NCBI GenBank assembly: GCA_958295785.1
Contig: OY282377.1
Span: 3,006,385 to 3,070,384 of the forward strand
Origin: an uncultured Latescibacterota bacterium
GTDB lineage: Bacteria; Latescibacterota; UBA2968
Length of the DNA stretch: 64,000 nucleotides
Reading direction: 5' to 3'
Every line of letters begins with the position of its first letter. The first letter of the stretch is position 1. Under the pieces are notes generated by a model, which saw only the letters and a list, made by a program, of their open reading frames with translations, was not told the origin of the DNA and made no database searches. The translations under genes were made by a program, and so were the position numbers. Shown one piece after another: positions 30,536 through 33,109 of this stretch.

Positions 30536-30671
30536 ATCAGCTATCAACCCCCCCCCACCCTTTCGCCCCGTGTGCGTGTCCATCTCGTCCGCTTGGGGCC
30601 GGGTGGCTTGGTTGCTGACCGCTAATTGCAACTGACGAACCCCTTGAACGCGCAGTTTTGTCAAGACAGGT

Positions 30672-30758
30672 AGGGGGTGAACGGTTCAAGGTGGGCCGCC
30701 CGATATATGTCGGTGGTGCGGGCAACCGCATAGGGTTCGAGTCCCTCACCCTCTGCCA
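30672..30758 (+). tRNA. tRNA-like element, probably a degenerate type II tRNA
   Basis: 87 nt ending in a genomic CCA. The acceptor strands AGGGGGT and ACCCTCT pair over 7 bp with one G-U, the T loop is TTCGAGT with a T-stem mismatch, and TGCGGGCAACCGCA forms a long variable arm. A 3-bp D stem (CGG/CCG) is possible. The anticodon arm is three bases short (CCGAT-ATAT-GTCGG), so no normal anticodon loop forms. It is best read as a pseudo-tRNA or an integration relic. Confidence 0.4.
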
Positions 30759-30769
30759 ATTGTATCTTT

Positions 30770-30798
30770 GGACGAGCACAGGGGCATCGCCCCTGCGT
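30770..30798. repeat. dispersed palindromic repeat copy
   Basis: GGACGAGCACAGGGGCATCG followed by CCCC, minus orientation, between the tRNA-like element and the IS4 remnant. Confidence 0.75.
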
Positions 30799-30806
30799 TT
30801 CTATCC

Positions 30807-30908
30807 CTCCGAAATGATCTCGAAAAGGGCTTAAAGATGTATCGGAAACGCTGGTCTATTGAAACCGCTTTGGCTTGTCTCAAATCAATTGAAACCAAGA
30901 AAAAATAG
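30807..30908 (+). pseudogene. IS4-family transposase C-terminal remnant
   Basis: The plus strand encodes LEKGLKMYRKRWSIETALAC and on to LKSIETKKK-stop. Y-RK-R-WSI-E-TALACL-K fits the IS4 YREK signature exactly. Only about 34 codons remain; a palindromic repeat (30770-30798) lies immediately upstream. The stop codon TAG is directly followed by the ATG of tnpB, so the TnpB element landed in or next to an old IS4 copy. Confidence 0.55.
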
Positions 30909-32237
30909 ATGTCACAACAACTCGCCATAGATTTCAACAAGGTCGCGACGATTGAGACTGAAAAAGTCAATCGTATGATTCGCTACCGCGTGCTGGCAGG
31001 CACAAAAGGACGGGGAAATAAAATCGCCGGTACTGCGGGGACTGTGCGCTTTCTGTGGAACAAACTTATTGAGCGTAATAAGCGAGCCTATAAGCAATAC
31101 AAAGAGATGGTTAAGAAGGGTGAGGATGCCGAGTCGCCGAGCACCAATTATGAATCATTCAGCAAAGAGTATTTGGCGATCAAAGCGGAGTTTCCGTGGC
31201 TTTCCGAGTATACGTCCTATGTTCGTGCTTCTGCGGCCAAGCCATTGTCCGTGGCATTTAAAAATAAGTTCAATGGGATTGGGGGGTTTCCGAAGTTCAA
31301 AGGTCGCCGTGGTGACGATTCCTTTGTCTATGATTTCACAGGGACAAAGAAAGCGATGGAGGATTTGTCCAAGAATGTTCTCAATATCCCGCGGGTTGGT
31401 AAAGTCACCATTCGTCGCCGGGGAGGGGATCCATATAGAGGATGCACACCAAAGGCCATTCGTATCAAACAAGAATGCGGTAAATGGTATGCCTATCTCT
31501 GTTATGAAATCACCATTCCAAAGGTGATGGATAAAGACCTTAAGACGGCGATTGGGATAGACATGAACGTTGTCAACCAATGTGCTATGTCCAATGGGGA
31601 AATAGTGAAGTCGTTGTCAGTAGAGAAATATGAGGCACGTAGAAAGCGATACCAGCGGCGATTGAGCCATCAGAAGAAAGGCAGTAAGCGGCGGGGACGG
31701 ACAAAAGAGAAGTTGGCAAAAACGGCTCGCAAGATTAAAAATGTCAGAGATACGCACAATCATACAATTTCCCATCGCATTGCAAAGAATGCCGACGTAG
31801 TGGTGGTAGAGGATTTGAACGTGAAGGGCATGACGGCAAAAGCGAAAGGGAAAGGGAAAGCACAGAAAAGCGGGTTGAACAAGGGCATTCTTAAGAATGC
31901 GTGGGGCGACCTTAGACGAATGCTGGAATATAAAGCCAACCGCCTTCAAGCGGTCAATCCCGCCTATACGTCACAGGCGTGTTCTCAATGTGGGCATGTG
32001 GCAAAATCAAATCGTAAATCACAATCGCAGTTCCACTGCAACGAATGTGGACATAGCGAGAATGCGGATGTGAATGCCGCAAAAAATGTTCTTTTTCTTG
32101 GAATGAAAGAGATTACGGCGTCGGTTTCAGGCGCATCTGGACGTGCGAGGGGCGTTCCCGAAGTAAAGGACCCCAATGACCCGTCAATTGACATTTTCGG
32201 CTCTAAGTTGATCCCCATATCTCATAGATTTTTATGA
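30909..32237 (+). CDS. tnpB: TnpB-family RNA-guided endonuclease (IS200/IS605 type) next to a CRISPR array
   Basis: 442 residues. The OB/REC-like N-terminal half begins near Met23 (MIRYRVLAGTK); an ATG at 30975 would start there. The RuvC nuclease is complete: Asp218 in AIGIDMN, Glu301 in VVVVEDLNVKGM and Asp387 in ENADVNAAKN. The zinc ribbon between them uses Cys358, Cys361, Cys377 and Cys380, and GLNKGILKNAWGDLRRMLEY is the usual bridge. TnpB is guided by an RNA encoded at the element's right end and cuts DNA; Cas12 nucleases descend from it. There is no TnpA partner. The CRISPR array starts 18 bases after the stop, an arrangement like type V-U loci. Confidence 0.93.
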   Translation: MSQQLAIDFNKVATIETEKVNRMIRYRVLAGTKGRGNKIAGTAGTVRFLWNKLIERNKRAYKQYKEMVKKGEDAESPSTNYESFSKEYLAIKAEFPWLSEYTSYVRASAAKPLSVAFKNKFNGIGGFPKFKGRRGDDSFVYDFTGTKKAMEDLSKNVLNIPRVGKVTIRRRGGDPYRGCTPKAIRIKQECGKWYAYLCYEITIPKVMDKDLKTAIGIDMNVVNQCAMSNGEIVKSLSVEKYEARRKRYQRRLSHQKKGSKRRGRTKEKLAKTARKIKNVRDTHNHTISHRIAKNADVVVVEDLNVKGMTAKAKGKGKAQKSGLNKGILKNAWGDLRRMLEYKANRLQAVNPAYTSQACSQCGHVAKSNRKSQSQFHCNECGHSENADVNAAKNVLFLGMKEITASVSGASGRARGVPEVKDPNDPSIDIFGSKLIPISHRFL

Positions 32238-32243
32238 GGATAT
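32217..32243 (+). other. imperfect hairpin overlapping the tnpB stop (candidate right-end/guide-RNA element)
   Basis: ATATCTCATA and TATGAGGATAT pair over 10 bp with one bulged G around a GATTTT loop, spanning the last codons and stop of tnpB. IS200/IS605 right ends carry subterminal hairpins and their guide RNAs end here, so this may mark the element's right end. The first CRISPR repeat begins 13 bases further on. Confidence 0.5.
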
Positions 32244-32255
32244 AGCCACCATACG

Positions 32256-33010
32256 GCCGAGGGCAACTTGGATCCGAGGATGGATTGAAACCTGGATCCT
32301 GTCCCCACAATCACAGATCGCGGGCGAGGCCGAGGGCAACTTGGATCCGAGGATGGATTGAAACCCGAACAGGTCTTTCTGTGTCCAGATTTTCGAAGGC
32401 GCCGAGGGCAACTTGGATCCGAGGATGGATTGAAACCGTGGGGGGTTCGTATCGGGAAACGTCGGGCATCTTGCCGAGGGCAACTTGGATCCGAGGATGG
32501 ATTGAAACCTTTCAGGAGAATCCCTGTCCGCGTTTTTTCCTTGGCCGAGGGCAACTTGGATCCGAGGATGGATTGAAACAATGTTCTGAATGTGTTTAGC
32601 GATAGAGCTTTGTTTGCCGAGGGCAACTTGGATCCGAGGATGGATTGAAACCAAACCAGAATCGCCGAGGATATGGCGGGGAACCGCCGAGGGCAACTTG
32701 GATCCGAGGATGGATTGAAACCTGGATTCGCTCATCGAGCCGATCCCAATCTGGCAAGCCGAGGGCAACTTGGATCCGAGGATGGATTGAAACCTGGGGT
32801 GTTGCTGAAATTGCGTTGACGTACCTGAGGCCGAGGGCAACTTGGATCCGAGGATGGATTGAAACCCAACAAAGGGGTGCAGAGCCTGTCGCCGATCTTG
32901 AGCCGAGGGCAACTTGGATCCGAGGATGGATTGAAACTAATGCGGCCCGCTTCGGATAGCCCGGAGCGCGACGGGCCGAGGGCAACTTGGATCCGAGGAT
33001 GGATTGAAAC
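32256..33010 (+). CRISPR. CRISPR array: 11 identical 36-nt repeats, 10 spacers, no cas genes in the window
   Basis: Repeats start at 32256, 32329, 32401, 32473, 32544, 32616, 32686, 32758, 32830, 32902 and 32975. Each begins GCCGAGGGCAAC and ends GGATTGAAAC. All eleven copies read the same, including the last, so there is no degenerate end. Spacers are 37, 36, 36, 35, 36, 34, 36, 36, 36 and 37 nt and all differ. The ATTGAAAC 3' end points to plus-strand transcription, from the tnpB side. Two small stems are possible in the repeat RNA (CCGAG/CUUGG and GAUCC/GGAUU). Such repeat ends are common in class 1 systems and in type V-K. Confidence 0.98.
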
Positions 33011-33109
33011 TATTATACGATGTCTTTACAGACGGGTATTTTGCTTATGAAAAACTTCACTCAAAATACCGAATTGCAAGATGTTGTACACCTCCAAAGG
33101 AGACAAACC

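What the first reader, a model, noticed from the sequence alone, without database searches (positions are those of the whole stretch)
30909..33010. A catalytically complete TnpB sits 18 bases upstream of an 11-repeat CRISPR array with no cas genes
Seen: the RuvC Asp218/Glu301/Asp387 and four zinc-ribbon cysteines are intact; the stop is at 32237 and repeat 1 starts at 32256; all eleven repeats are identical; and no Cas1/2 or other Cas protein is encoded in 64 kb. Known: Cas12 nucleases arose from TnpB, type V-U loci are TnpB-like genes next to arrays, and TnpB guide RNAs are made from the 3' end of the gene with the guide 3' of the scaffold, the same polarity as the plus-strand crRNAs here. 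Inference: the array may supply guides to this TnpB, with the hairpin at 32217-32243 or the repeat as scaffold. The alternative is an IS200/IS605 copy lodged in the leader of an orphan class 1 array; the ATTGAAAC repeat end is common there.
Basis: partly seen in the sequence, partly recalled or inferred. Interest (0 to 1): 0.87.

Follow-up and report, generated by a model that had tools for sequence, protein, structure and literature searches.

The report
TnpB gene beside orphan CRISPR array
An intact transposon-type RNA-guided nuclease gene (tnpB) lies 18 bases before an 11-repeat CRISPR array; the end of the gene encodes its guide-RNA scaffold plus a stretch that can pair with the CRISPR repeat, so this may be a further case of a jumping-gene nuclease becoming a CRISPR enzyme, although a chance neighbourhood with an array of the cell's ordinary CRISPR type is nearly as likely.

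Summary
In detail: an intact 442-aa TnpB (30909-32237), an 18-base gap, then 11 identical 36-nt repeats (32256-33010), with no cas genes nearby. None uses this repeat, but the I-B and III-A repeats share its 3' end ATTGAAAC. New evidence: (1) the tnpB 3' end carries an omegaRNA scaffold core homologous to that of its closest relatives (32129-32197, E 6.9e-6). (2) Overlapping it is an anti-repeat (32184-32214) that pairs with 24 of 25 consecutive repeat bases (p about 0.002; 0 of 3000 scrambled repeats), as in a tracrRNA; the resident class 1 arrays show none. (3) Of 25 examined members of the sister Dadabacteria clade, one (L277) also has a mini-array directly after tnpB, its repeat ending in its sisters' transposon tip. 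Best reading: TnpB using array guides through a split guide RNA (V-U/TranC-like), confidence 0.5. Strong rival (0.4): TnpB with an ordinary omegaRNA beside an orphan class 1 array (shared handle, I-B-like spacer lengths, possible omegaRNA end at 32217). The kind is known: about 50 TnpB-array associations are on record.

The parts
30909..32237 (+). tnpB, 442 aa, RuvC triad and zinc ribbon intact
32129..32197 (+). omegaRNA scaffold core inside the 3' end of tnpB
   Evidence: covariance model R2 built from 19 relatives without the window: 26.3 bits, E 6.9e-6 over 64 kb; next match E 0.17
32184..32214 (+). anti-repeat, complementary to the CRISPR repeat (repeat nt 9-33 paired at 24 of 25 positions)
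   Evidence: cis fold z -3.28
32208..32217 (+). TTGATCCCCA, possible element right end / omegaRNA end (supports the rival reading)
   Evidence: aligned to the relatives' tip ATTCCCA by model R1, whole match 15.2 bits
32217..32243 (+). hairpin between anti-repeat and repeat 1
32256..33010 (+). CRISPR array, 11 identical repeats GCCGAGGGCAACTTGGATCCGAGGATGGATTGAAAC, 10 spacers of 34-37 nt
30858..30896 (+). two copies of ATTGAAACC (repeat 3' end) 30 nt apart, just before the tnpB start; role unknown

Best explanation
The locus is a TnpB that has taken on a CRISPR array as its guide source (type V-U / TranC-like). The tnpB transcript yields a scaffold RNA from its 3' end (homology of the scaffold core shown; transcription inferred). 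Its last part is an anti-repeat (complementarity shown) that pairs with the repeat: in cis with repeat 1, giving one long omegaRNA whose guide is spacer 1, and in trans with the other repeats, giving tracrRNA:crRNA pairs (inferred). TnpB would then cut DNA matching the spacers next to a 5' motif (inferred from the TnpB family). New spacers would have to come from a resident class 1 Cas1-Cas2 acting in trans (inferred).
For: Anti-repeat: best complementarity of the window outside the array, p 0.0021 for a 150-nt flank and 0 of 3000 scrambled repeats, none at the resident I-B and III-A arrays, cis fold z -3.28. OmegaRNA core homologous to relatives, E 6.9e-6. Catalytic residues intact. Guide polarity right: scaffold 5', spacer 3'. 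The repeat is used by no cas locus found in the genome. In the sister clade, L277 has a mini-array directly after tnpB.
Against: The repeat 3' end ATTGAAAC is identical to both resident class 1 repeats and the spacer lengths match I-B. The full-length model aligns an omegaRNA end at 32217, 38 nt before repeat 1. No relative shares the tnpB-repeat junction. The L277 anti-repeat is not significant. The RNAduplex energy alone does not stand out, and a longer stretch folds unremarkably (z -1.12). p about 0.002 rests on one locus without covariation.
Confidence: 0.5

Rival explanations
1. A TnpB with an ordinary, self-contained omegaRNA (ending about 32217) lies by chance or insertion in the leader of an orphan class 1 array, which the resident I-B or III-A machinery serves in trans. 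The anti-repeat is then a coincidence.
For: ATTGAAAC handle shared with both resident class 1 repeats, ten nt with I-B; spacer lengths as in I-B; TTGATCCCCA at 32208-32217 aligned to the relatives' RNA end; 24 of 25 examined sister-clade copies have no array; tnpB genes are common in this genus.
Against: Anti-repeat p 0.002; no element ends (inverted ends plus target duplication) above chance around this tnpB; the repeat differs from both resident repeats outside the handle.
Confidence: 0.4
2. The anti-repeat and the ATTGAAACC motifs left of tnpB are decayed CRISPR repeats: tnpB lies inside an old array region and shares ancestry, not function, with the array.
For: ATTGAAACC twice just left of tnpB, while ATTGAAAC occurs only three more times in the rest of the window; GTTTCTATCCCTCC at 30797 resembles the inverted repeat end.
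Against: The left motifs are 30 nt apart, not 72, and match only 8-9 nt; the anti-repeat overlaps the conserved omegaRNA core; 5 of the 6 departures from Watson-Crick pairing in the aligned stretch are G-U pairs.
Confidence: 0.1

Closest known systems
Type V-U loci (TnpB homologues next to CRISPR arrays; PMC6452270, PMC12669027)
   Same: TnpB-sized effector with intact RuvC beside an array, no adaptation genes at the locus
   Different: No conservation of this junction in relatives; protein closer to plain TnpB models than to c2c8 or Cas12f2 models
TranC, transposon-CRISPR intermediates (Jin et al. 2025, doi 10.1016/j.cell.2025.09.004; seen only as a reference; details from memory)
   Same: Nearly unmodified TnpB, omegaRNA-like scaffold at the gene end, anti-repeat facing an array repeat
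   Different: Different lineage: LaTranC matches at E 6.9e-11 against 6.7e-25 for ISDra2 TnpB; function untested
ISDra2 / ISFba1 TnpB with omegaRNA (reRNA)
   Same: Fold, catalytic residues, scaffold RNA from the gene end
   Different: An 11-repeat CRISPR array follows instead of arbitrary host DNA; no tnpA and no recognisable element ends here
Orphan class 1 (I-B / III-A) CRISPR arrays
   Same: ATTGAAAC handle, 36-nt repeat, I-B-like spacer length
   Different: Rest of the repeat unlike the resident repeats; anti-repeat directly upstream, which the resident arrays lack

Membership tests
Type V-U | TnpB-like gene next to a CRISPR array | tested here: met
Type V-U | No adaptation module at the locus | tested here: met
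Type V-U | Gene-array association conserved in related genomes | tested here: not met
   repeat absent from 146 other genomes; 24 of 25 examined sister-clade copies without array; only L277 has one
TranC / split guide RNA | Anti-repeat (tracrRNA) able to pair with the repeat | tested here: met
   p 0.0021, 0 of 3000 scrambles
TranC / split guide RNA | Scaffold homologous to an omegaRNA | tested here: met
   E 6.9e-6
TranC / split guide RNA | Cleavage guided by array crRNA | not testable with these tools
   needs biochemistry
IS200/IS605-type TnpB element | RNA-guided TnpB with omegaRNA core | tested here: met
IS200/IS605-type TnpB element | Recognisable element ends around the gene | tested here: inconclusive
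   inverted-end plus duplication scan no better than shuffles, but such ends belong to the Dadabacteria relatives, not to IS605; possible right end at 32217
Orphan class 1 array | Repeat shared with a cas locus | tested here: not met
   no locus with up to 3 mismatches
Orphan class 1 array | Class 1 type 8-nt handle ATTGAAAC | tested here: met
Orphan class 1 array | Spacer length of the resident adaptation machinery | tested here: met
   34-37, mode 36, against I-B 34-39, mode 36

The most novel reading that the evidence does not exclude
In this TnpB lineage CRISPR repeats arise from the element's own guide-RNA end. In L277 the repeat still carries the transposon tip ATTCCCA, and in the window a longer repeat has co-evolved with an anti-repeat inside the tnpB gene, so that two stages of the split of an omegaRNA into tracrRNA and crRNA are seen in one clade.
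Probability: 0.25. Interest if true: 0.8.

Novelty: new member of a known kind. Interest (0 to 1): 0.55.

Why it matters
The 2025 classification states that about 50 independent associations of TnpB with CRISPR arrays or adaptation modules have been inferred and that more remain to be found (PMC12669027). A case with an almost unmodified TnpB, a recognisable ancestral omegaRNA core and an anti-repeat in the coding region, plus a sister locus whose repeat ends in a transposon tip, would let the step from transposon guide RNA to CRISPR guide be tested directly with small proteins.

Tried and rejected
Repeat elsewhere: none in the genome, 146 other genomes, IMG/VR (exact 29-mer), phages or plasmids. 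Protospacers: four spacer cores in IMG/VR and the whole array against 65 genomes gave nothing convincing. Similarity of the repeat to sequence downstream of 125 distant TnpBs: none. PADLOC Cas12f/Cas12u4 hits rejected as evidence because array-less TnpBs score as high or higher. Anti-repeat at L277, L202 and L194: not significant. RNAduplex energy ranking alone: not discriminating. Inverted ends and target duplication around the window tnpB: nothing above shuffles. Array-neighbour TnpBs do not form a clade.

Full report
Observation. The sequence is as described: tnpB 30909-32237, 18 bases, then 11 identical 36-nt repeats to 33010. The protein is a TnpB (NCBIfam guided_TnpB E 1.7e-73). D218, E301, D387 and three zinc cysteines are invariant, and the fourth nearly so, in 49 relatives. 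The predicted fold (mean pLDDT 84.8) is closest to ISFba1 and ISDra2 TnpB, then Cas12f, with LaTranC lower.

Genome context. The genome is one 5.66-Mb contig. It has complete type III-A and I-B loci with long arrays and a type I-E locus (I-E assigned from the repeat and gene order, not domain-scanned). Their repeats differ from the orphan repeat, but the III-A and I-B repeats also end in ATTGAAAC, and the I-B repeat in GGATTGAAAC. Orphan spacers (34-37, mode 36) match I-B (34-39, mode 36) and not III-A (mostly 38-40) in length. The orphan repeat occurs nowhere else in the genome or in 146 other genomes.

Synteny. The flanking SASA-family gene and the amidohydrolase (nagA-like) gene are conserved in the genus. 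In the three genomes where both lie on one contig (G008, G004, G002) they are about 45-89 kb apart in the same order. The window's segment 30536-33095 stands in place of what lies there in relatives. Whether the relatives' genes are lost or moved was not tested.

Anti-repeat. A type V reading predicts an anti-repeat near the array. The last part of tnpB, 32184-32214, pairs with the repeat: repeat nt 9-33 pair at 24 of 25 positions, 4 of them G-U, with one mismatch and a 2-nt bulge. It is the best complementarity in the window outside the array, both strands. Tiles of 150 nt over about 350 kb (both strands counted) give p 0.0021, and 0 of 3000 scrambled repeats reach it. Other scoring schemes give an expected 0.0002-0.002 in a 105-nt flank, except one without G-U pairs, which gives 0.046. 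The resident I-B and III-A arrays have nothing comparable. The cis fold with repeat 1 has z -3.28, no shuffle of 200 as stable; a longer stretch folds less remarkably (z -1.12).

OmegaRNA. The closest relatives found are a Dadabacteria clade, 39-43% identical (tree). Its members end in a conserved gene-end RNA and a fixed tip ATTCCCA, after which host DNA diverges. A covariance model of the core built from 19 relatives, without the window, finds window 32129-32197 at 26.3 bits, E 6.9e-6 over 64 kb, far above the next match at 0.17 (calibration is rough). The shared motif ACCCGT..AATTGA is read in different frames on the two sides of a 1-nt indel, which points to conservation of RNA rather than protein (inference). 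The anti-repeat overlaps the end of this core.

Sister locus. Of 25 clade loci examined, one (L277) has two 38-nt repeats and a degenerate third directly after tnpB, with two 28-nt spacers. The repeat ends ATTCCCAA, the terminal sequence of its sisters. Its genome's own CRISPR locus is next to a Cas9-like gene and has a different repeat (Cas9 named from length and sequence, not domain-scanned). For about half of the sisters 13-bp inverted ends could be recognised, several with 8-bp target duplications; L277 and the window show no such ends. The L277 anti-repeat is not significant.

Weighing. For a functional link: adjacency, polarity, anti-repeat, omegaRNA core, sister locus. Against: the class 1 handle, I-B spacer lengths, and a possible omegaRNA end at 32217. 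The readings are not exclusive: a class 1 array may have been co-opted. I put the functional link at 0.5 and coincidence at 0.4; these are judgements, not computed.

Known kind. V-U loci are TnpB homologues next to arrays without adaptation genes (PMC6452270), and about 50 TnpB-array associations are recorded (PMC12669027). OmegaRNA made from the tnpB mRNA is established for AmaTnpB (PMC10278001). TranC details are from memory; the paper was seen only as a reference, and LaTranC as PDB entries.

Noticed in passing
L277 / L383:385-548 (Dadabacteria genome G158): tnpB of the sister clade followed directly by a mini-array: 38-nt repeat GTTGCAATAAGCGGGCGTTTGCCCGGTTCTATTCCCAA twice plus a degenerate copy, 28-nt spacers; the repeat ends in the transposon tip of its sisters.
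   Followed up: partly
L271, L281, L285, L296: Dadabacteria tnpB elements have 13-bp terminal inverted repeats (GGGAATTATATAC) and 8-bp target duplications, unlike IS200/IS605 ends, which suggests mobilisation by a different transposase.
   Followed up: partly
window 30858-30866 and 30888-30896: ATTGAAACC, the CRISPR repeat end, occurs twice just before the tnpB start; ATTGAAAC occurs only three more times in the window outside the array. Unexplained.
   Followed up: partly
window 30797-30810: GTTTCTATCCCTCC resembles the reverse complement of the repeat 3' end (12 of 14), an inverted match on the other side of tnpB.
   Followed up: partly
window 30671-30755: tRNA-Sec-like sequence, Rfam 36.1 bits (below the family cut-off of 47), not called by ARAGORN; perhaps a decayed tRNA or an integration site.
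   Followed up: no
window 30536-33095: This segment stands where three same-genus genomes have about 45-89 kb of other genes between the same two neighbours.
   Followed up: partly
L202:6086-6375, L194:6197-6460, L141:3562-3716, L073:3402-3546, L360 after 4122: Other tnpB genes with a short CRISPR-like array close by, several in viral contigs, on scattered branches of the TnpB tree (L360 not placed).
   Followed up: partly
window 32292-32971: 8 of 10 spacers begin with C, against 42 of 137 in the resident I-B array, which may reflect a different adaptation preference.
   Followed up: no
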